From assembly GCA_963855995.1 (NCBI GenBank), contig OY979731.1, forward strand, positions 3,063,001-3,127,000: 64,000 nt of DNA, given 5' to 3'. The notes beneath the pieces were generated by a model. The model had not been told where the DNA came from. It was given only the letters and a program-made list of their open reading frames with translations, and ran no database searches. The stretch comes from Muricea muricata. Taxonomy: Eukaryota; Cnidaria; Anthozoa; Malacalcyonacea; Plexauridae. A program made the position numbers and the translations under genes. Each line of letters starts with the position of its first letter. The stretch's first letter is position 1. Positions 1-39,339 of the stretch are shown here, one piece after another.

Positions 1-1109
1 AAACATAAATTTAACGAAAACGCGAGAACTGAGGACAAGTTTTGGACATTTCGAAAAGTAAACGCGGACAGAAGCTTATTGGTAAGCACTCGTGATCAGT
101 TAAACCTTATGGGGGGGGGGGTACACTTGATAATTCTAAAATATAGCAAAACAAATTTTGAGTCAAATAAAGAAACAATTGCAATAGTCGAACTGTTGAC
201 GGTCATAATTGATCCCGATTTTATGGGTAACATAAGGGGACCTGCCGAGACCATTCTGTTGGAAGGAGTTTGTAGAAATATTCTCTACAAACAGTGAATT
301 GACTACATGATTATCCGTGGTTTGAATTCTATTCGATGGCAAGCAAATGCCACGATTAAAACGTTGCTAAATTCGTAATTTTTAAACTTGAAGTTTACGA
401 GGGAAGTTAACCAGTAATCGCAATTATCGCATTGACTCCTCGTAAATGTCTAGAAATCAGGACTTCAGGGCATTTTTTAAGAGATTCGTTTAAGAGGAAT
501 CAACCCCCCTGTTAAATAAAATTAATGCGACCAAAAACATAAAAGCATGTTTTGCGCACCAAATAACGTTTTGACAACACTTCGAAAAAATAGACAGGGG
601 GAGGTATAGCCACAGTAGTGATATACACACAGTAGTGGGCAACCACCCTCCCCCCCGTTGTTTGTTGTGAAATATTGTAAAAAGTTACTTCGTGCACAAA
701 ACATCCTTAAATTTTTTAATTACATTGCTTACATATTTAGCGGGGGGGGGGGGGGAGAGTGCCTCTCAAGCCAACCTGCACAGAATTTCGTTCGTTAGCA
801 CGCAGTGCTTGGCTTAAACTAAAATTTCTAGACATGCCAAAATGTTTTTGCCTTTAGAATGGTCGACCTGAACCTGGGCGGAATTTTGCAATGATCCCGT
901 GAGGAAATCTTACACTAGTCGACTATGCCGTTTAAAGCCGGTTTTTCACTGGGAGAATTTGCGCACGTGATAATTAGTTTGCTCGATTTTTTCAAAAGCT
1001 CGGCTCTTTATCATCTCATTATTTTACTAAATCAGGTTATGGTTCCAAATCAGTGCGAGAATTCTGCTATCTATCACGTGCGGATTGATAACCGGTTTTG
1101 TTATTTTAG
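1..1109. other. Non-coding flank and last intron of the leftmost matrix-gene copy
   Basis: I see no supportable exon here. The last ~180 bases (about 925-1109) resemble 15485-15633, the end of the last intron of the complete gene, so this is intron of a copy whose upstream exons lie outside the window. Poly-G runs sit near 111 and 740. Around 545-700 there is a weak inverted repeat (tgttttgcgcac / gtgcacaaaaca) that may be a small MITE. Confidence 0.5.
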
Positions 1110-1753
1110 ATTTATTTGGTTTAAAATTATTTCCTGGAAAGTCGTGTAAAGACATCTTAACCAAACACACCTCCCCAGTCTCAGGAACTTACTGGATCAA
1201 GCCCGCTTCCAATAAAACCTTTCAAGTTTACTGTGACATGGAAACTCGCGGCGGAGGCTGGACCTTGGTTTACAGCTACACCTTTACAATTACAACAATT
1301 TTGACTCAAACAGTAATACCGTCACCCCCCGCCCAAACTGGCCTTACTTCGTCGCTAATGTACGAATCTCAACTACTCCTCCACTCAATGAGTCATCACT
1401 TGGGGCTGTCGACTGGAGTGTCTGGAAGGATATTGGGAAAGAATTCATGATCAAATCCAACATAAACGATTGGATAGTTTGTCAACCAAGTGGCGGAAGT
1501 ATAGTTACACACAAAACATGGATCACTAAACTGTCAAAACATAAAGAACGTGGCGACAGCTTGTAGTGGTCGGGTTCCAAATGGAATGGAGTGGTATTTT
1601 GGAGGACCGTTACTTTATATTTTCCCATCGCTTTATTATTATTTTGATGGAGACACCCGTAATAGTTGGCCAACTCATGATCCTTGCGGGAGAAGTCAAC
1701 AAAATCACAAGAAAGGAGTCAGCAACCCTGGTGGACAAATCTATCTCCGTTAG
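1110..1753 (+). pseudogene. Terminal fibrinogen-like exon of matrix-gene copy 1, frameshifted
   Basis: The exon starts after a polypyrimidine tract and AG at 1108-1109 and reads FPGKSCKDIL, SGTYWIK, then CDMETRGGGWTLVYSYTF, the same module as 15634-16268. The frame is lost soon after (near 1285-1330) and later pieces (KSNINDWIVCQPS and the ACSG region) appear in other frames. The tail ends in the shared CGT-TAG. The family module resembles the start of fibrinogen-related domains, as in coral skeletal matrix proteins. Several indels make a functional product unlikely, though a single bad stretch of assembly cannot be excluded. The upstream exons are off the window. Confidence 0.75.
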
Positions 1754-13800: not shown

Positions 13801-16268
13801 GAAGAATTATATCTGATAATGTTTATCCACTGTATGTGTCGGGTGCAGGTAGGGTCGTAACAGGCGATTAATTTGATCGTTTACGTGGAAACAAAACACC
13901 CAACCGACTAAAATATTACCTAATTACGTATGTAACTGGCTTCATGGAACTGACTACAATGGACTGATTTCATAGAGTGGACTGACTACAATGGACTGAT
14001 CTTACGGACACCACCGACACGTCGCTATTACGAAGTTACGAACACCCTGCTATTCTAAGGACACTTTTAAATCCCCAGCTAAAACTATTATTAATTGCAT
14101 TGCAATAGCTGTTTTCTCTAAATGCAACATGACAAATGCATACAGCCTTTAGTTAGTAAAACATCCCTTACAAGAGTCCCTTGACAAGCACGCAACTGCT
14201 ACTTGCACTATACTATACCTACACTTATATTTTACTTTATCGACGAACAATAATTGCTGAACTGTTATCCCTTCAGACCCTCTTGGTTAAAAACAAAGAA
14301 GGCTTTAACAATCTTCCACCGCTGCCTGGGATGCTTTCATATCGCGAGGACAACGAAAAACTTTACGTCAACAGAGGAAATAAGTGGGATGAAATCGGTA
14401 GTGAAAAAGAGGTTAGTTGTACTGCAGGTCTTGTTGAGTTTTAAAATGGCGATGTTTCTTGATCAGTCGGGCTGATGAGAAAAATAAAATTATGAATAGT
14501 AAATTTAATAATTCATTATAAAATAAACTTTAGTCAATTCACAAAGGCGCTTGATTGGGGTTGTTGTTGAATGTTTAATATTTTAAAAAGCACCACTTGT
14601 TAAGGCGTGCAAGCAATCTCATTACAGCATTTGGATAAGTTGTGTTCAACCGCTTATTGCGACAAACTTGGTGATATTATGAGCCTTGCTGCATGTTTTT
14701 TAGCAACTTTTACACAATGTGATAAAATAAGAATGCTACAAAATTTTAAGGATATTGATATATTACTAATGCACCAACAGTTGTTAATTTGAAGTTCGAT
14801 ATTCTAGACCGACAATTTAACACTACAAGTTGAAAAGCTACAACAGGAAAACTCCCAGCAAGAAAAACAAATCCAAAACCTTGGCAACAAAACTTCTCAA
14901 CAAGATAACCAAATCCAAAACCTTCGCAACAAAAACTCCCAGCACGAAAAACAAATCCAAAACCTCGGCAACAAAACCTCTAAACAAGACAACCAAATTC
15001 AAAACCTCGGCAATAAAAACTCCCAACAAGATAACCAAATCCAAAACCTCGGCAACAAAAACTCGCAACAAGACACACAAATTAAAATTCTTGAAAAAAA
15101 GTTACAAAAGATTGAAACAGAACTAAACAGTAAGTAAAAATAAAATATAGCGTACCACCGCTTCATCATGGCAAGAAATCATAGACCCAATTAATATTCT
15201 ACCCAATATCATGTTAACCATGACTTCGTTACTAAAAGTAAGCTCCCCGAGGTGCGTTCAATTTTGGATCTGAAAGTATATTTGGTTCTTCTCGAATGTT
15301 TTGTTTGGTTTGGTTCTCCTCCTGATCAAGCACTCATACTCTAAGGCATCATTGCGTTTATCTTATGAATAAATAGCATACGCATGAATGCATGTATGAC
15401 TAATTGTTGTAGTTCACCAGGGTGGAAGCATTGTAAAAAGTAAAGCGGATAATATTGTAAGTTTGAGTCGCACGCACGCAAAATAGAAACGGCATTGTAT
15501 GGTGGTACATTTTATGTCGGTTCGCAAACGAAAGAAAAACAGCTTTTTGCAGCTCTATGGTGCCAAATCATTGTGAGAATTTTACGAACTGTTCCGTGCG
15601 AACTAAAAAAATATTTTTGTTATTTGGATGTAGTAGGTTCAAAATTACATCCTGGAAAGTCGTGTAAAGATATCTTGGCAAGAAAAACTGTCGCCACCTC
15701 AGGAACTTACTGGATCATGCCCGCTTCCAATAAAACCTTTCAAGTTTACTGTGACATGGAAACTCGCGGGGGAGGCTGGACCTTGGTTTACAGCTATACC
15801 TTTACAAATTATAAGAGTTTTGGCTCAGGAAGTAATGCCGTCACCCCCCGTCCAAACTGGCCTGCCAGGAAAGTTAACGTTCCAATCTCAACCACCCCTC
15901 CACCCAATGAGTCATCACTTGGGGCTGTTGACTGGAATGTCTGGAAGGACATTGGAAAGGATTTCATGGTGAAATCCAACATAAACGATTGGATAGTTTG
16001 TCAACCAATTAACGGAAGTATAGTCACAAAGAAACATGGATCAATAAGCTGTCAAAACATAAAGAACGTGGCGACAGCTTGTAGTGGTGTGGTTCCAAAT
16101 AAAATGTATTGGTTTTTTCGAGGACCTTCACTTCATGCTTCATTCAAATACTATTATTTTGGTGGAGGCACCCGTTATTACTGGCCAACTCATGATCCTT
16201 GTGGGAAAGATCAAGAAAATCACAAGAAAGGAGTCAGCAACCCAGGTGGACAAATCTATCTTCGCTAG
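7898..16268 (+). CDS. Secreted coiled-coil protein with two fibrinogen-like modules (12 exons, 750 aa)
   Basis: Exons: 7898-7987, 9241-9361, 9649-9770, 11181-11389, 11698-11878, 12199-12293, 12380-12452, 12717-12944, 13329-13370, 14277-14411, 14808-15129, 15634-16268. All junctions are GT..AG with matching phases, giving 2253 nt. Exon 1 is a signal peptide (hydrophobic VLVLLLISLQWL). Residues ~70-300 hold a first fibrinogen-like module (GFYWIK, WCNTHTDNGGFLLVG) rich in Cys. Residues ~388-432 (PGMLSYREDNEKLYV) resemble the trimerisation segment of collagens XV/XVIII. Residues ~433-539 are a 14-residue-repeat coiled coil. The terminal exon (~540-750) is a second module (GKSCKDI, CDMETRGGGWTLV). 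It is likely a secreted oligomer of the extracellular or skeletal matrix, related to coral SOMP-5-type proteins. The last acceptor is TAGTAG, so it may start 3 nt later. Function is inferred from domains only. Confidence 0.88.
8349..8432 (+). repeat. tRNA-like (SINE-type) relic
   Basis: In intron 1 the sequence has an A-box-like gcgcagttcggttggcagag and, about 50 bases on, a B-box-like gctcgattcc. The pairing is poor and no clean cloverleaf forms, so a tRNA-derived SINE head or dead tRNA fits better than an active tRNA gene. Confidence 0.3.
9790..10215. repeat. 'ggtccgtac' foldback repeat in intron 3
   Basis: A near-perfect hairpin at about 10090-10205 has arms built on 'gtaccgtgaaatatcgga' with the gacctcgct motif at the loop. 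Similar 'cggtccgtaa' motifs at 9805-9870 suggest the left end of the same element. Confidence 0.6.
10550..11140. repeat. Large foldback element in intron 3
   Basis: The arms are inverted copies. The left includes 'ggcttattaataaaaacctt', 'gtttctgaaacactgaag' and 'gacgttacaacctgggta'; the right has their complements near 11090, 11020 and 10935. At about 590 bp it is a non-autonomous DNA element. It holds no open frame of note. Confidence 0.65.
13425..13900. repeat. MITE with 'gtttccacgta' termini in intron 9
   Basis: The left end 'gtttccacgtatc' is mirrored by 'tacgtggaaac' near 13884-13894, with further 'gtttccacgtatc' copies inside (about 13780). It lies between exons 9 and 10 of the complete gene. 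Confidence 0.45.
14850..15105 (+). repeat. 42-bp coding minisatellite (six units) in exon 11
   Basis: Six tandem units each encode 14 residues of the form (N/T)SQQ(E/D)(K/N)QIQNLGNK. Every unit is two heptads, so the repeat keeps both frame and coiled-coil register. The last unit is diverged (QIKILEKK) and leads into the end of the coil. Confidence 0.9.
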
Positions 16269-19619: not shown

Positions 19620-19627
19620 CAGTAAAA
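19620..19627. repeat. Left target-site duplication of the 4.5 kb element
   Basis: cagtaaaa here matches cagtaaat at 24121-24128 in 7 of 8 positions. An 8-bp duplication with one substitution, or a 7-bp one plus one base, both fit. Confidence 0.65.
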
Positions 19628-19707
19628 GTAGTCTATCCGGCCTGTTTGGGATCGGAAGTAATTAGTATGTAGGATGGTATTGGCGGCGGAAGTAATTAGT
19701 ATTCAGG
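19628..19707 (+). repeat. Left terminal inverted repeat
   Basis: It begins gtagtctatccggcctgttt and matches the reverse complement of 24041-24120 at 74 of 80 positions. The first 42 positions are identical. Confidence 0.92.
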
Positions 19708-19880
19708 ATGCCGCCGGAAGGTGACGTCATCAAGAAAATCTGGCGAGGGAAGTAATTAGTATGCAGGTATTGTTAAGACCGGAAGTAATTAGTATGCAGG
19801 ATGCCGTCGTCATGAGGAGGGCCCTTTTGGCATCGGAAGTAATTAGTATTCAAGATGGCGCCGGAAGTAATGGTAACGTT
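19652..19880 (+). repeat. Subterminal array of 'ggaagtaattagtat' units
   Basis: Five full copies and one partial copy of ggaagtaattagtatnca occur at the left end, and two in inverse orientation at the right end. Some are preceded by cc, giving ccggaagt, an ETS-like core. Repeated subterminal motifs of this kind are typical transposase-binding or promoter elements. Which role applies here is unknown. Confidence 0.75.
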
Positions 19881-19920
19881 ACCGGGTAATGTTACCAGGT
19901 AATGTTACCAGGTAATCACA
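19871..19920. repeat. 'ggtaatgttacc' palindrome repeats
   Basis: One ggtaacgttacc palindrome is followed by two copies of ggtaatgttacc and a partial ggtaat. They lie between the subterminal array and the 3' end of the leftmost minus-strand frame. Confidence 0.7.
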
Positions 19921-19997
19921 AGTATTAAATTAGAATGTTTATAAAAGAATACAGACATGGTTTTATTTCGTGACACAAGTAAAAGATAACAAATATT

Positions 19998-20444
19998 TTA
20001 ATGCTTTATTTCGTTTTGATAGTTTGAATCGTCAAATGTTTTTTCGACTTTTAAAAGCCGTTGAAACTTTCTCTTGTGTTCATCGGTTTGGTCTTGCTGC
20101 GTTTTTCGTGGTTTCTTTGACAATGGATTGGACGGTAGGCTCATCGCTGTGCCCACCCATTTCGTATGACCTGTAGACCGGTGCTTTAATTTCACAGGCC
20201 AATAATTTTCGCCATTGATCTCAACACCTCCACGGACAGGCTGATAGTTTTCGTTGCGCGATGTGTTGTACATTTCAATGATAACATAGCCTTCGGGAAT
20301 CTTACGGACCCCCGGTACTCCCGAGGTGTATTCTTGCCACTCGGGAATAGTTGCATTGGACCAGGTGACGGTTTGCACAGGCTTCTTCCTTGAAGACGTG
20401 ATTTTGGTTGTTGTGCTGCGTTTGCCTACAGGCTTGGTTTCCAC
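19998..20444 (-). pseudogene. C-terminal frame of the element's minus-strand gene block, unknown
   Basis: About 148 codons are open without an ATG; the frame simply enters from the upstream ATPase frame near 20440-20460. The product is basic (KPVGKRSTTTK at its start, KKPRKTQQDQ near the end), with a compact middle containing YVIIEMYNT and NYWPVKLKHR. It may be the ATPase C-terminus after a frameshift, or a separate protein using a non-ATG start. I do not recognise the domain. Confidence 0.55.
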
Positions 20445-20449
20445 ACGTA

Positions 20450-21147
20450 GTGTTCACACCGAAGTGATAAGCATAGCATTCCCCAAATAGGTCTGCAAGA
20501 ATTTGCTGATCGGCTGGTGTGCCGGGTTTGTTATCCACCAACAAATATCCATACGGTTTTTCGGTCTCTTTGTAATAAGCGTGCATAAAGTGCACTCTAT
20601 TTTTGTTGAACATGCGTTCCCCGATAATTCCAATTTGTGTCCAATCGGAAGAGAACCAAGTACTGGGCATTTTGGCTGATATCCGTATTATATTTCCCTT
20701 TAGGAAACATGTTTTGCAGCAGTAAGATAACGCTGGCGTTTCGATGACGGCCTTGGGTAAACAATCGAGACACTACAGGACAGTCTGTCGCTTCAGCCAT
20801 CAAATCGTCTAGGATGATGATGTTATTGTACCGGGCATTGATTTCACACAGATCTTCGCAGACAGTTCGGGCACACCTCTTTCACATCGGATACTTTTTC
20901 CAAGCGATGTTTTCAACTTTTCGTAACATTCTTGCCATTGATTGTAGTACCAAAAAATGCGAATTTGCTCTTCATACACGATACGATTGTTTTCCAAAAT
21001 TTGTCGGACAAAATACGTTTTTCCACTTTGTGTGGGACCCACAACCAAAAGTGAGAATTTATGGCGGAAGGACAGGACAGGATTTGGTTGCCAAAGATGT
21101 CGTACGCGCTGCTGTTCTTGGTCTTTTTGCGGGTGGCGAATGTTCAC
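20450..21147 (-). pseudogene. Packaging-type P-loop ATPase, frameshifted
   Basis: From an ATG at 21147 the frame reads a hydrophobic strand and a Walker A motif (GPTQSGKT). A Walker B (IIILDD) lies near 20810-20830 in a different frame, followed by GRHRNASVILLLQN, a sensor-like strand-Asn. The next stretch (KGKYNTDISQNAQYLVLF) and the C-terminal part lie in a third frame. At least two breaks, near 20855-20880 and 20645-20665, interrupt the gene. The order Walker A, Walker B, Q/N sensor fits the FtsK/HerA ATPases that package viral and Polinton DNA. As it stands the copy should not yield a complete enzyme unless the indels are assembly errors. The gene overlaps the upstream C2H2 frame by about 90 bases. 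Confidence 0.8.
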
Positions 21148-21370
21148 TTTGTTTTACACGCTTTTGTCCACGCTTCTCAACGTTCATATAGGACATAGTC
21201 ATATGCGGAGACCTTTCGATGCGGGGCTGCCATGACGACACCTGGGCTTGCTTAAGATAGGGCTTTCTCTCCTCAGAAGATAAGCCGTGAACTTGTAAAA
21301 GATGTGTACTGATATTCTTCAAATCAGGTCGTCCGCAAACCGAACAGATCCGGCGAAATCGTCTTTGCAT
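21059..21370 (-). CDS. Small C2H2 zinc-finger protein upstream of the ATPase
   Basis: The frame starts at an ATG (21370) and has 103 codons. Residues ~9-29 form a single finger, CSVCGRPDLKNISTHLLQVH (C-x2-C-x12-H-x4-H), followed by LSSEERKPYLK. The C-terminal half is basic (KRGQKRVK, PPAKRPRTAAR), like a nuclear localisation signal. It overlaps the start of the ATPase frame, so the two may have been one polypeptide before an indel, or two overlapping genes. A DNA-binding or terminus-recognition role is inference. Confidence 0.6.
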   Translation of the reverse strand: MQRRFRRICSVCGRPDLKNISTHLLQVHGLSSEERKPYLKQAQVSSWQPRIERSPHMTMSYMNVEKRGQKRVKQSEHSPPAKRPRTAARTTSLATKSCPVLPP

Positions 21371-21458
21371 GGCTGCTCCAGTAAATGATTCCAGTTTAGA
21401 TAGAAACACGATTCTATATACTATTGCTTTGAGGGAGCAGTGGTGTGGAAATTCTCTG

Positions 21459-21612
21459 AAGCTTCTGTGAAGCTTCTGTGAAGCTTCTGTGAAGCTTCTG
21501 TGAAGCTTCTGTGAAGCTTCTGTCAAGCTTCTGTCAAGCTTCTGTCAAGCTTCTGTGAAGCTTCTGCCAAGCTTCTGCTAAGCTTCTGCGAAGCTTCTGT
21601 GAAGCTTCTGTC
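21459..21612. repeat. 14 x 11-bp tandem repeat in a divergent spacer
   Basis: Fourteen consecutive units of aagcttctgtg (with variants tc, cc, ct and cg at the end of the unit) fill the space between the minus-strand C2H2/ATPase block and the plus-strand acidic gene. The position suggests a bidirectional regulatory array or replication-related iterons. No function is proven. Confidence 0.95.
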
Positions 21613-21681
21613 TTGTTTTTGTGTATAAATAGTCGTACATAGCCGAGAATTTGTTTATTTTGCACTGACATTCGTAAGACA

Positions 21682-22197
21682 ATGGACAGTCAATACAGCG
21701 AAAGCCTCGTAGGCGATGACTACAGCGAAAGTTCCATGGAAACTCATGCCGAAGACGATAGTAGCATTACGACAGAAGACCGTGATGAAAACAGTTCTGA
21801 AGAAGAACAAAGCAGTATCACAACTGAAAACAGTTCTGATGAGGAAATCGATCCCTGGAGTACATTGATCAACGACGCAGCGTCTAAGGTCCGGGATCAG
21901 TACCATGATATCTTGCAAGCGCTTCTCATGGAGGGTCATGACGAAAGCAAAGCGAAAGAGGAAGCCTTTGAAAAAATTCTGCCTGTTTTTCAAAAGGAAT
22001 TGGGCGATGTCTACATGGATAACTTGATGAAAGCGTTGAAAAGAGATCCCATCCACAAAAAGATCATGGCGACCCGAGATGATTATGTGAACAACAATAT
22101 GTTTGATCCGGATGAAGCTATAGCAGCGGCCGTAAAGAAGAGAAAGTTTTTGTTGAAACGGCTATTAGAAGGTCAAGGACGTTTTCCAGAACAATGA
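21682..22197 (+). CDS. Acidic protein of the TIR element (171 aa), unknown
   Basis: This is an intact frame from ATG to TGA and the only undamaged longer gene in the element. Residues 1-55 are Ser/Glu/Asp-rich and low in complexity (DDSSITTEDRDENSSEEEQ). Residues ~60-171 look alpha-helical (HDILQALLMEGHDESKAKEE) and end basic (KKRKFLLKRLLEGQGRF). There is no membrane segment or Cys cluster. It follows the 11-bp repeat array by about 70 bases. I do not recognise it; an acidic activator-like or nucleoprotein role would be speculation. Confidence 0.7.
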   Translation: MDSQYSESLVGDDYSESSMETHAEDDSSITTEDRDENSSEEEQSSITTENSSDEEIDPWSTLINDAASKVRDQYHDILQALLMEGHDESKAKEEAFEKILPVFQKELGDVYMDNLMKALKRDPIHKKIMATRDDYVNNNMFDPDEAIAAAVKKRKFLLKRLLEGQGRFPEQ

Positions 22198-22543
22198 ATC
22201 CAAACACTATAGATAAACTATTGCCCTAAGTAAATGGTTGTAATGAGAAGGCTATATCTTAATAAATATGTGGAAACACAGTTCTCTTTTATATGTTTAC
22301 TCAAGGCGTAACGTTATATCCCTACAAGCCATAACGTATCGCCAAACAGTATAAAACTCACTTCACAACACATACTGGTCAAGATGAAGTGCTTACACGG
22401 AAAACCTTGTGCTCACACAAAAAGGATTAGTAATTGCGAAGTGCTTTTTCGGATGGGTTGAACAAACGCAGAATATGTGTTTTGAAATATATATTATAAA
22501 GCTGTGTACAACAATAAAATGTAGAACGTTTGTAATGTTTCAA
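22198..22543. other. Element-internal spacer
   Basis: Between the convergent ends of the acidic gene (+) and the next minus-strand frame. It holds aataaa on the + strand at about 22259 and 22513, suitable as poly(A) signals. No frame is seen. Confidence 0.4.
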
Positions 22544-23019
22544 TTAGAGCTGTGAGTTGAGATTATTGATAAAGTTTGAGCATTGTTCTTTTCCATTTCG
22601 CTTCGTGAGTGGTCGGGAGAATTCGTAAAAAGACTCTTCGGGCACGCCTTCGAAGTAGTTGCATGAATCTTCTTGAGCACAGAATAAATGATCTTTGTCG
22701 ACAGTTTCTTTTTTGAGTTTACGAACTACGCATGTATCCTTTGTTTACTACAGCTTTTCATTAGACGATGAATTTCTTTTTGATCTATCCCACATAAGAA
22801 ATATAAGCACAGCATTCCCTGGTTATTTCTAAGTCTTCTCATTTCTTTGAGGTCACGGCATGCACCGTCTACCAAATTGTTCAACATCCAGGTTTGTACG
22901 TCAACCCTCCGTGTGCGAAGATATAAAGTAGTCCTCTTTTTCTATAAATATTCAACTCTTTTTCTAGCCTCTGCCACACGCTTGTTCAGGTCATGTAACC
23001 GCGATAAGTTCTCCTCCAT
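22544..23019 (-). pseudogene. Decayed element gene, unknown product
   Basis: An ATG at 23019 opens a frame with a helical start (SRLHDLNKRVAEARKRVEYL) that hits a TAG after 25 codons. The same frame continues for about 70 codons (WMLNNLVDGACRDLKEMRR) to a TAG, and a shifted frame then runs to a TAA at 22544-22546 (DSCNYFEGVPEESFYEF). Continuous protein-like composition across the breaks supports a former gene of about 155 residues. No family is recognised. Confidence 0.6.
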
Positions 23020-23226
23020 TAAATTGACAATCTAAAAGTCTTATCTCTGTGAAAGTTGTAAGCACTATGCTCTCATCGACTCAATATTCTCATTTTATAG
23101 TGAGGATAACTGAAAACCAATCAGACTCGCTTGTACTCGTTCCAAAATCTTCACACAATGAATTCGTTTTGTTTATTCTCTTATCTTTAGGTACTCGTTT
23201 GAACCAATCAGAAGACGTTTAGCGTT

Positions 23227-23365
23227 AGATCTCCCGGGAGATTTGACGTGAGATCTCCCGGGAGATTTGACGTGAGATCTCACGGGAGATTTGACGCCAT
23301 ATCTCACGGGAGATTTGACGCCATATCTCACGGGAGATTTGACCATATCTCACGAGAGATTTTAC
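23227..23365. repeat. 6 x 24-bp palindromic repeats in the second divergent spacer
   Basis: Units centre on atctcccgggagat or atctcacgggagat followed by ttgacg. The core of the first two units is a perfect palindrome, and later units drift to atctcacgagagat. The array lies between the minus-strand gene at 22544-23019 and the plus-strand RING gene starting at 23390. Repeated palindromes in a shared 5' region look like binding sites for a dimeric regulator. Confidence 0.9.
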
Positions 23366-23389
23366 AATCATAACACTCACTCGCTAAAC

Positions 23390-23839
23390 ATGGAGCACGT
23401 CGGAAATCTGGCTGAAGCAGACGATGTCTTATCGCCTACAATCATACCAGTATTCGGCCTGCTGAGCCCTCCCGCCGAACAAGAAGAAACGTGCCACTAG
23501 TGCTTTGAAACCATCGCAAAAGGACAGTTTATGGTACTCAAATTGCCGTGCTGCGGACATCTCGTCCACACCACTTGCTTCAAGACATGGGCAACTACAT
23601 CCCACAAAGAATCCGTCGTACACTGCGCCTATTGCAGAACCGCCTATCCGTACGAAGACACCTGCTTCCTTTGCTTGCAAGAATACACAGAAAAACTCAA
23701 CTGCACAATGTGCTGCCACACGAAACTCCACGCAGAATGCAGCACAGATCTCACAGCCCTACTCCAACTCCTACCCTTCGGCCACACACTAGAATGCGGA
23801 CAACTTACTGAATGTAATCGTCTCTGGGTAGGCGTATAA
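23390..23839 (+). pseudogene. RING-H2-type protein with an in-frame amber stop
   Basis: The ATG is at 23390. After ~36 codons a TAG (23498-23500) falls between the first two zinc-binding cysteines (CH-stop-CF). The frame then continues through CCGHLVHTTC and CAYC, completing a C3H2C3 RING-H2 pattern. A second Cys/His cluster follows (CFLC, CTMCCH, HAEC), and the frame ends at 23839. The length of ~149 codons fits a small viral- or transposon-type ubiquitin ligase. One substitution explains the stop, so the gene died recently, or the stop is read through. E3 activity is inferred from the metal ligands only. Confidence 0.7.
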
Positions 23840-23850
23840 AGCAACTCTAT

Positions 23851-23937
23851 ACCGAACAATCATCCAGTTATTATATACCGAACAATCATTCAGTTATTAT
23901 ATACCGAACGATCATCCAGTTATTATATATCGAACAG
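23851..23937. repeat. 26-bp tandem repeat after the RING gene
   Basis: Units of 'accgaacaatcatccagtta' plus 'ttatat' repeat three times with a partial fourth. They lie just after the RING stop codon and before the right terminus. Confidence 0.85.
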
Positions 23938-24040
23938 TCCTATAACGTAATCTTATATATCGTTCATCATTTATTGTTGTAAACAATTTTATAATATACA
24001 TTTTTTCAAAACATATATCTTGTGTGTCTATTCATTGCTA

Positions 24041-24120
24041 CCTGCATACTAATTACTTCCCTCGCCAATGCCATCCCGCATACTAATTACTTCCGATCCC
24101 AAACAGGCCGGATAGACTAC
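24041..24120 (-). repeat. Right terminal inverted repeat
   Basis: This is the inverse of 19628-19707, with two inverted ggaagtaattagtat motifs. It ends at ggatagactac next to the right target duplication. Confidence 0.92.
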
Positions 24121-24128
24121 CAGTAAAT
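24121..24128. repeat. Right target-site duplication of the 4.5 kb element
   Basis: cagtaaat matches the left flank cagtaaaa in 7 of 8 positions. Confidence 0.65.
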
Positions 24129-24208: not shown

Positions 24209-24275
24209 GCCGTAGCTCAGTGGTCAGAACAGTGCACCGAGTTACAGTAGTAACTGCAGTTTAGTCCTTTCTCGT
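24209..24275 (+). repeat. tRNA-like A-box relic
   Basis: cgccgtagctcagtggtcag is a good tRNA A-box, but the 3' part (cagtttagtcc) is a weak B-box. A tRNA-derived SINE head or dead tRNA is likelier than a functional tRNA. A weaker relative occurs near 8083, next to the exon-1 copy of the complete gene, so it was duplicated with that region. Confidence 0.35.
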
Positions 24276-37865: not shown

Positions 37866-39339
37866 ATAGCCCAAAGTAATGGCCCCCGTATGCTCAACCA
37901 CCTCATTACTGATTCCCACAATCGTCTACGAATTTACCAACAAAAAATGCATGGATATCGCAGCTCAGTGATACAAAATACAACCACAACTGATGCAAAG
38001 TCTTTAGACAACGGCATAAACCAACAAAGATTTATCATTTGATAAACCAACAAAGACAGTGAGCTGCATGTATTGTTAGTTAATCTAATGACTTGTTCCA
38101 CAATCAGCTTTTGTATCTTTTACTTATTTTTCCTAAACAAAGTCATGGTTCTGTGAAAATCATATCGTGTATATATGCTAAACAACATTTCTGTTCTTAC
38201 AGAATATGGCTCAAAATTATTTCCTGGAAAGTCGTGTAAAGCCATCTTAGTCAAAAAATCATCCCCAGTTTCAGGAACTTATTGGATCAAGCTCGTAAAT
38301 TCCAATAAAGCCTTTCAAGTTTACTGTGATATGGAAACTCACGGGGGAGGCTGGACCTTGGTTTACAGCTACACCTTTACAAATTATAGCAGTTTTAACT
38401 CAACCAGTAATGCCGTCATCCCCTGTCCAAACTGGCCTATTTCTCATGTCCACGTTCCAATTTCAACCACTCCTCCACTTAACGAGTCAACACTTGGGGC
38501 TTTAAACTGGACGTCTTGGAAGGACATTGGGAAAGAGTTCATGGTCAAATCCAACATTAACGATTGGATCGTTTGTCAACCAAGTGGCGGAAGTATAGTT
38601 GCAATGTGAAAAACATCGCAACAACTTGTAGTGGAGTAGTACCATATAGAGTGCTCTGGTATCCTCGAGGAGTTTGTCTCTCGGCTTCTGCGCATTACTA
38701 TTTCTTCAAGACAGCAACAGATTTTAGATGGCCAGCTCATGATCCTTGTGGAGCATTTGATCCAAATCACAAGAAAGGCGTCATCAACCCTGGTGGACAA
38801 ATCTATCTTCGCTAGGAACCACCCTCAACATTCAGTAGTTTGTTTCGGACAACACATGATATAACATGCACAAGAAATCACAACATGGACATAGTAACGA
38901 AGTTTCCATACATGTAACTCTTAATTACTACAGAATGTATGCAAAGCAATTTAGAATTTGCTTCGGCAATATCGAAACATAATAATAATAATATTTAAAA
39001 CTTATATAGCGCAAATTAATTAGCATGCTCATATGATCAAATGCACTTTCATTCATAATTCAATTTAATTCATAACATGCAAAAAGTAAACAATTAAATA
39101 TAGTATTATATCATTGATTTGAGTGTGACGATTTAAGGTGTTTACAGTAATATGTTGACGTCTAATACGGACAATGTCCAAATAAACCCAGCTGCAATTG
39201 TTGTAAGTCTGCAAACACGACTCAATACAGGTAATACTTGCCAATAAGGTGTTGGCAAGCTCTCTCCAGTACATGCATAGACATGCTGAAATGTACTAAT
39301 TTGAGAACTGTCTTCATGTTAATACAGTATACCAATGAC

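What the first reader, a model, noticed from the sequence alone, without database searches (positions are those of the whole stretch)
19628..24120. A 4.5 kb TIR element with a packaging-type ATPase but no integrase, polymerase or capsid
Seen: matched ~80-bp inverted ends, a 7-8 bp target duplication, and six gene slots including a Walker A/B ATPase, a C2H2 protein and a RING-H2 protein. Known: FtsK/HerA ATPases of this style belong to Polintons, adintoviruses and related DNA elements, which are normally 10-20 kb with a 6-bp duplication. Inferred: this is either a strongly reduced relative mobilised in trans, or a separate compact family in cnidarians. I cannot name a described family with this gene set, ends and duplication size.
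Basis: partly seen in the sequence, partly recalled or inferred. Interest (0 to 1): 0.9.

Follow-up and report, generated by a model that had tools for sequence, protein, structure and literature searches.

The report
Small satellite-like relatives of Polinton viruses
The 4.5-kb element is a worn-out member of a large family of small DNA elements that carry the ends of a virus-like Polinton transposon together with their own distinct DNA-packaging motor, and so look like parasites (satellites) of Polintons in corals and sea anemones.

Summary
The element is real: 80-bp inverted ends, 93% alike. The 7-8 bp duplication is a register error: the ends read AGTAGT.../...ACTACC and the duplication is 6 bp, AGTAAA/AGTAAA, the published Maverick/Polinton rule. 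In the same genome 8 of 10 two-ended elements have flanks matching at 5 or 6 of 6 positions (control 4 of 90). Full-size Polintons with the same end type occur there. The window's right 1.8 kb is largely degenerate Polinton-type DNA; its left 2.7 kb matches a separate element type, mostly 2.6-3.4 kb, with two genes: a C2H2-ATPase-CTD protein (about 445 aa, Pfam Pox_A32) and an acidic protein (about 173 aa). ATPase matches lie at 124 or more places. Sampled open copies show purifying selection (pooled pN/pS 0.37 and 0.26). The ATPase is a separate lineage from the resident Polinton's; relatives are named in Exaiptasia, Actinostola and Porites. Best reading: protein-coding Polinton satellites, moved in trans by Polinton integrase and perhaps packaged by their own motor. 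The window copy is a mosaic with a broken ATPase gene.

The parts
19621..19626 (.). left copy of 6-bp target duplication AGTAAA
19627..19707 (+). left TIR, begins AGTAGTCTATCC (Polinton/Maverick end motif AGTAGT)
   Evidence: rule in PMC8097293 (passages)
19654..19871 (+). subterminal repeats around GGAAGTAATTAGTATGCAGGATG (about five copies)
19872..19916 (+). GGTAATGTTACCA tandem array, also in L012
19998..21373 (-). broken gene for a C2H2-ATPase-CTD protein (A32-type packaging ATPase); four changes of frame. Pieces: zinc finger 21059-21373, Walker A piece 20809-21147, Walker B/sensor piece 20597-20803, C-terminal ATPase piece 20302-20670, CTD 19998-20453
   Evidence: pieces; relatives; the window pieces themselves do not reach the Pox_A32 profile
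21452..21611 (.). 11-bp tandem array between the divergent ATPase and acidic genes; shared with other copies
21682..22197 (+). open gene for a 171-aa acidic protein (493 proteins at E <= 0.001 in the protein collection)
22211..22302 (.). repeat that flanks the cassette as inverted copies in several small elements (inner part of their long TIRs)
22627..22734 (-). remnant of a Polinton zf-GRF gene
   Evidence: 80-81% to L018 and L016; Pfam Zn_ribbon_GRF for those genes
22746..23125 (.). further DNA shared with L023 (RING-bearing element) and L018 (Polinton)
23223..23362 (.). 24-bp tandem/inverted array upstream of the RING gene, shared with Polinton-type ends and with small elements
23390..23839 (+). 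RING-H2 gene (often 149 aa in relatives), one in-frame stop here; also in Polinton-type stretches L016, L017
24041..24121 (-). right TIR, reads GGTAGTCTATCC inwards
24122..24127 (.). right copy of 6-bp target duplication AGTAAA

Best explanation
The window holds a decayed mosaic copy of a family of small, protein-coding satellite elements of Polintons (Mavericks). SHOWN: the family has Polinton ends and 6-bp duplications; the stretches read hold no detected integrase, polymerase or capsid gene; it carries an A32-type packaging ATPase fused to a C2H2 finger and a C-terminal domain, plus an acidic protein; sampled open copies of both genes show the mark of purifying selection. SHOWN for the window copy: its left 2.7 kb is of this type, its right 1.8 kb is largely Polinton-type DNA, and one pair of 6-bp duplications flanks the whole. 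INFERRED: the Polinton integrase recognises the shared ends and inserts the element; the Polinton polymerase copies it from the shared inverted ends; the element's own ATPase, guided by its zinc finger and helped by the acidic protein, loads element DNA into Polinton-made capsids in competition with the Polinton ATPase.
For: Ends and duplications: of 14 paired elements, 4 have lost the end motif on one side (L012, L013, L014, L022); of the other 10, 8 have flanks matching at 5 or 6 of 6 positions in strict register (4 perfect), control 4 of 90 cross-pairs (an earlier version without L026: 7 of 9, control 2 of 72). The motif and 6-bp rule are in PMC8097293 (passages). Same-end Polintons: a 28-kb element (L033, L045, L034) has inverted ends 98.7% alike over 153 bp and matches to PolB, integrase, chromodomain, penton, MCP, protease and Polinton-ATPase pieces; Pfam confirms rve, DNA_pol_B_2, Chromo and zf-GRF for the pieces of the 20-kb element used as queries. 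Separation: 13 of 37 fetched stretches carry the cassette or part of it, 0 of 13 a detected core gene; 10 carry core genes, 0 of 10 the cassette at 50% identity or more. Seven cassette elements have end-type sequence on both sides within 2.6-4.7 kb. Selection: pooled pN/pS 0.26 (acidic, 43 of 45 pairs scored, all 43 below 1) and 0.37 (ATPase, 26 of 36 pairs scored, all 26 below 1); third codon positions differ most. Number: 150 scored rows of 445 candidates fall into 124 places. Separate motor: 24-27% identity over about 200 aa to the broken Polinton ATPase L034, 41-47% in short in-frame pieces. Conservation: 441-aa relative in Exaiptasia at 68%.
Against: No transcript, particle or new insertion was examined, so movement in trans and packaging are inference. 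Contexts were read for 13 cassette stretches only, found through similarity of their ends, against 124 ATPase places; a full-size Polinton using this ATPase elsewhere here or in other hexacorals is not excluded, and the genome-wide tally that would show it did not complete. Stretches were 1-10 kb long, so absence of core genes holds only within them and at tblastn E <= 1e-4. The 20-kb element's flanks do not match (3 of 6), so its two ends may not belong to one insertion; the 28-kb Polinton's match at 5 of 6; L016 fails in strict register (2 of 6; AACATG on both sides only with a one-base shift). Four of 90 control pairs also reach 5 or 6. ORFs used for pN/pS were chosen because they were open, and pairs are not independent. 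The long shared TIR is clear in only some copies. The Polinton ATPase piece does not reach the Pox_A32 profile. No structure could be predicted.
Confidence: 0.68

Rival explanations
1. Plain deletion derivatives: a Polinton lineage not yet seen uses the C2H2-ATPase as its ordinary packaging motor, and the small elements are non-autonomous leftovers. Selection acted on the full-size parent.
For: Non-autonomous derivatives are common for DNA transposons (general knowledge). The window copy itself is a mosaic with Polinton-type DNA. The two ATPases are homologous. Only 13 cassette contexts were read.
Against: The small elements read share one order of parts and similar spacing rather than scattered deletion endpoints. 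0 of 13 cassette stretches hold a detected core gene. The two full-size elements read have their own ATPase and not this one.
Confidence: 0.22
2. An independent transposon family whose ATPase and acidic protein carry out transposition themselves (an AAA+ helper of TnsC/MuB type), with ends similar to Polintons by convergence or recombination.
For: No integrase in the element. Weak AAA and TniB profile hits at the P-loop piece, all below cut-off.
Against: Three satellite-type ATPases pass the Pox_A32 cut-off (E 1.9e-05 to 1.1e-07), and six align from Walker A to the C-terminal PYGYLL motif with a Polinton ATPase. End motif and 6-bp duplication are those of Polintons.
Confidence: 0.04
3. The window element is only a chance composite of old repeats, not one mobile unit.
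For: It is a mosaic, its ATPase and RING genes are broken, and none of the 37 stretches holds both the ATPase cassette and RING. A genome search for its internal junction did not complete.
Against: Perfect 6-bp duplication in strict register directly outside the two inverted ends.
Confidence: 0.12

Closest known systems
Polinton/Maverick elements (polintoviruses)
   Same: End motif AGTAGT//ACTACT, inverted ends, 6-bp duplications; packaging ATPase family; RING and zf-GRF material shared with resident Polinton-type elements.
   Different: 2.6-4.7 kb instead of 15-25 kb; no detected integrase, PolB, capsid or protease gene; ATPase of a separate lineage with a C2H2 N-terminus and an extra C-terminal domain.
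Adintoviruses and other animal Polinton-related viruses
   Same: The resident 20-28-kb elements have that kind of gene set (recalled for adintoviruses) and could supply the missing functions.
   Different: No capsid or polymerase here; five IMG/VR scans found no relative of the ATPases or the acidic protein.
Phage satellites (P4, PICI, cfPICI, PLE)
   Same: Small elements that depend on a larger virus and encode their own packaging or capsid-diverting proteins (recalled; papers seen only as listings).
   Different: Eukaryotic host, transposon-like ends, Polinton helper; dependence not tested.
Virophages and transpovirons
   Same: Dependent DNA elements in eukaryotes (recalled).
   Different: Virophages have their own capsid genes; helpers are giant viruses (recalled).
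Poxvirus A32 / NCLDV packaging ATPases
   Same: Pox_A32 profile above its curated cut-off in three satellite-type ATPases.
   Different: C2H2 and C-terminal domains; no NCLDV gene noticed alongside in the stretches read (not searched for as such).

Membership tests
Polinton/Maverick (autonomous) | Inverted ends with AGTAGT//ACTACT motif | tested here: met
   the window's right end has one changed terminal base
Polinton/Maverick (autonomous) | 6-bp target duplication | tested here: met
   AGTAAA/AGTAAA; 8 of 10 two-ended elements at 5-6 of 6
Polinton/Maverick (autonomous) | Retroviral-type integrase | tested here: not met
   no match in the 13 cassette stretches; none among the window element's ORFs
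Polinton/Maverick (autonomous) | Protein-primed PolB | tested here: not met
Polinton/Maverick (autonomous) | Major and minor capsid proteins, adenovirus-like protease | tested here: not met
   (by similarity to resident Polinton pieces; Pfam has no hit for the MCP and protease pieces)
Polinton/Maverick (autonomous) | Packaging ATPase | tested here: met
   homologous but a separate lineage
Non-autonomous Polinton derivative | Polinton ends without the mobility genes, plus resident full-size Polintons with matching ends | tested here: met
Viral satellite | Own genes maintained by selection | tested here: met
   open ORFs only, pairs not independent, and selection on an unseen full-size parent is not excluded
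Viral satellite | Dependence on a helper and transmission in helper particles | not testable with these tools
   needs particles and an active helper
Adintovirus | Full gene set with capsid and PolB | tested here: not met

The most novel reading that the evidence does not exclude
Corals and sea anemones harbour a long-lived class of satellites of animal Polinton viruses: two-gene elements of about 2.7 kb that borrow the helper's integrase, polymerase and capsid but bring their own zinc-finger-guided packaging motor. They would be animal counterparts of phage satellites and would imply that Polintons really form particles in these animals.
Probability: 0.45. Interest if true: 0.86.

Novelty: new variant of a known kind. 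Interest (0 to 1): 0.7.

Why it matters
Whether Mavericks/Polintons make particles is an open question (their particles have not been observed, according to the abstract of PMC8097293 listed). A parasite of Polintons that keeps a packaging motor under selection only makes sense if there is something to package into, so this family turns the question into a direct test: look for DNase-protected small-element DNA. It would also extend satellite biology (hijacked capsids, competing motors) to animal DNA viruses, and gives a class label for a high-copy hexacoral gene family whose few named members are called 'hypothetical', 'unnamed' or 'uncharacterized'.

Tried and rejected
Rejected: hAT, P, Mutator and other 7-8-bp duplication superfamilies (their duplication sizes are recalled), because in register the duplication is 6 bp and the ends carry the Maverick motif. 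Rejected: a stand-alone C2H2 gene, because it is the ATPase N-terminus. Rejected: helpers lacking their own ATPase, because both full-size elements have one. Led nowhere: IMG/VR scans (no relative by tblastn E <= 1e-3; records very near the window's genome may be left out there); PHROGs (best E 0.0053); PDB by sequence (best E 0.092); Rfam and tRNA scans of the window (none); phrase searches for non-autonomous or satellite Polintons. A genome-wide tally of capsid genes near the ATPase places, the copy count of the window's internal junction and that of the acidic gene could not be obtained because the genome search did not complete.
Full report
OBSERVATION. The duplication was misread. The left terminus is AGTAGTCTATCC and the right one, read inwards, GGTAGTCTATCC; the six bases outside both are AGTAAA. 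This is the published rule for vertebrate Mavericks: most common end motif (AGT)2//(ACT)2 and 6-bp duplications (PMC8097293, passages).

GENES. Three genes are recognisable, not six. On the minus strand, five pieces in changing frames match one protein that is unbroken elsewhere (for example 441 aa in Exaiptasia, 443-495 aa in unnamed contigs): a C2H2 finger (C9, C12, H23, H28 nearly invariant in 23 aligned proteins), an ATPase with Walker A and Walker B (IIILDDLM) motifs, and a C-terminal domain with a conserved YWPV block. Pfam scores Pox_A32 above the curated cut-off in the three satellite-type proteins tested (P0199, P0303, L013) and lists PF04665 for many of the 120 shown relatives; the window's own pieces do not reach it. 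On the plus strand, the 171-aa acidic gene is open (493 proteins at E <= 0.001, itself included) and the RING gene has one stop. A piece at 22627-22734 is the remnant of a zf-GRF gene found in resident Polinton-type stretches.

THE SAME GENOME. The window lies in an unnamed 453-Mb genome. A search with the left end gave 52 matches (40 of 239 candidates scored). I fetched 37 further stretches (L009-L045). One search sorts them: 13 carry the ATPase/acidic cassette or part of it (L010-L014, L021, L022, L025, L026, L028, L032, L035, L042); 10 carry Polinton core genes (L017-L020, L033, L034, L039, L040, L044, L045); 3 carry only a diverged acidic protein at 37-54%, one of them with RING (L009, L015, L024); 4 carry RING without these (L016, L023, L036, L038; L016 also zf-GRF); 7 show no match (L027, L029-L031, L037, L041, L043). 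No stretch holds both cassette and core genes; L034 matches the cassette ATPase at 27-38% through the Polinton's own ATPase. Several core stretches belong to the same element (L017-L019; L033, L045, L034). Stretches are 1-10 kb, so absence holds only within them.

POLINTONS WITH THE SAME ENDS. A 28-kb element (C2:57.64-57.67 Mb) has ends 98.7% alike over 153 bp, flanks CATTTC/CTTTTC (5 of 6) and matches to PolB, integrase, chromodomain, penton, MCP, protease and Polinton-ATPase pieces (integrase 69% to L018). Not all of it was read. A 20-kb stretch has window-type ends and a decayed gene set, confirmed by Pfam for rve, DNA_pol_B_2, Chromo and zf-GRF, but its flanks do not match (3 of 6), and another Polinton lies just beyond its right end, so it may not be one insertion. 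The names MCP, penton, protease and pVI rest on my recall of Polinton proteins and on mutual similarity; Pfam gave no hit for the MCP, pVI and protease pieces, and the penton piece was not submitted.

DUPLICATIONS. Of 14 paired elements, 4 have lost the end motif on one side (L012, L013, L014, L022). Of the other 10, 8 have flanks matching at 5 or 6 of 6 in strict register: window, L010, L011 and L026 perfect; L009, L015, L028 and L033/34 at 5. Misses: L016 (2; a one-base shift gives AACATG on both sides) and L017/19 (3). Control: 4 of 90 cross-pairs reach 5 or more (one search is the same without L026).

A TWO-GENE ELEMENT TYPE. Seven cassette elements (L010-L014, L022, L028) have end-type sequence on both sides, six of them 2.6-3.4 kb apart and L011 4.7 kb. 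In one search the TIRs match over 371-587 bp in L014, L022 and L028, in two blocks (80 and 386 bp) in L010, over 115 plus 170 bp in L013 and 141 bp in L011; L012 was not run. Window 19872-22337 is collinear with L012 at 90%, so the window's left 2.7 kb is of this type. Its right 1.8 kb is largely DNA shared with L016, L017-L019 and L023. The window is therefore a mosaic, yet one pair of 6-bp duplications flanks it.

SELECTION AND NUMBER. Pairwise comparison of naturally open stretches gives pooled pN/pS 0.26 for the acidic gene (10 sequences; 43 of 45 pairs scored, 43 below 1) and 0.37 for the ATPase (9 sequences, one with stops gave no scored pair; 26 of 36 pairs scored, 26 below 1). Differences at codon positions 1, 2, 3 are 5.9, 4.3, 10.5% (acidic, 10 sequences) and 8.2, 5.6, 11.1% (ATPase, 8 sequences). 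These are open ORFs by choice and pairs are not independent. The genome holds ATPase matches at 124 places (150 scored rows of 445 candidates, rows under 1.5 kb apart merged), a lower bound for matches but not a count of complete elements; open copies exist. The protein collection has 693 relatives at E <= 0.001; among the 120 shown, three carry species names: Actinostola (79%, 310 aa), Porites lobata (72%, 330 aa, no finger) and Exaiptasia diaphana (68%, 441 aa), i.e. Actiniaria and Scleractinia. Element context in those species was not seen.

A SEPARATE MOTOR. The resident Polinton ATPase (L034) aligns with satellite-type ATPases of six relatives at 24-27% over about 200 residues, from Walker A to PYGYLL (E-values there are for a tiny database). 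That gene is itself frame-broken, so the figure is somewhat low: short in-frame pieces reach 41-47% over 32-49 residues. Within the small elements the ATPase is far more alike. So the small elements carry their own motor lineage, not a recent copy of the resident Polinton's. Two versions of the N-terminal finger occur on nearly the same ATPase core in one genome.

HOW IT PROBABLY WORKS. Shared ends imply use of the Polinton integrase, and inverted ends suit a protein-primed polymerase supplied in trans. Keeping an ATPase of the packaging family under selection, while lacking every other virion gene looked for, is best explained if the ATPase acts on the element's own packaging. The finger and acidic protein may give specificity. 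These steps are inference. Polinton ATPases belong to the packaging family (PMC4028283, passages), and Polintons are typically 15-25 kb (PMC6431247, section 10).

KNOWN OR NEW. Phrase searches for non-autonomous, Polinton-derived or satellite Polintons found 3 papers, each with one occurrence of 'Polinton-derived' (passages not read); phrases for miniature, short or defective ones found 0. Broader searches showed nothing of this kind in their listings. Only open-licence PMC papers are held, and Repbase is not; I recall but did not check that Repbase may list non-autonomous Polintons. Bellas et al. 2023 note that cnidarian capsid genes alone among metazoans fall outside the main Maverick-Polinton cluster (PMC10120064, passages; author name recalled). 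A 2017 survey removed ATPases that grouped with polintons before analysis (PMC5294986, passages); its table names Exaiptasia pallida for one NCLDV marker whose column I could not identify. I class this as a new variant of a known kind.

Noticed in passing
L015 1865-2470, L009 4803-5240, L024 479-1185: A second small-element type with Polinton-like ends whose protein joins a C2H2 finger to a diverged acidic domain (37-54% identity; finger seen in L015 and L024), without a detected ATPase.
   Followed up: partly
L011, L042 versus L010, L012, L013, L014, L028: Two different N-terminal zinc-finger modules (MPYKHKR.. and MQRRFRR..) sit on nearly the same ATPase core in one genome, as if swapped.
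   Followed up: partly
L026 about 140-2020: A 1.9-kb two-ended element with a perfect 6-bp duplication (GTTGTG) that contains two inverted copies of the C2H2 N-terminal region and no other detected gene.
   Followed up: partly
L019 622-954 and L044: A second Polinton lies directly beyond the right end of the 20-kb element, suggesting nested or tandem Polintons.
   Followed up: no
window 24209-24260: tRNA-like start (GCCGTAGCTCAGTGGTCAGAACAG) close to the right duplication, possibly a SINE; ARAGORN finds no tRNA.
   Followed up: no
window 21452-21611: 11-bp tandem array between the divergent ATPase and acidic genes, with matches in copies L010, L012 and L013.
   Followed up: no
window 1031-1450, 15453-16268, 38157-38609: Several related open frames with a repeated 'GGGWTLVYSYTF' block, recalled as fibrinogen-like; looks like a local host gene cluster.
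   Followed up: no
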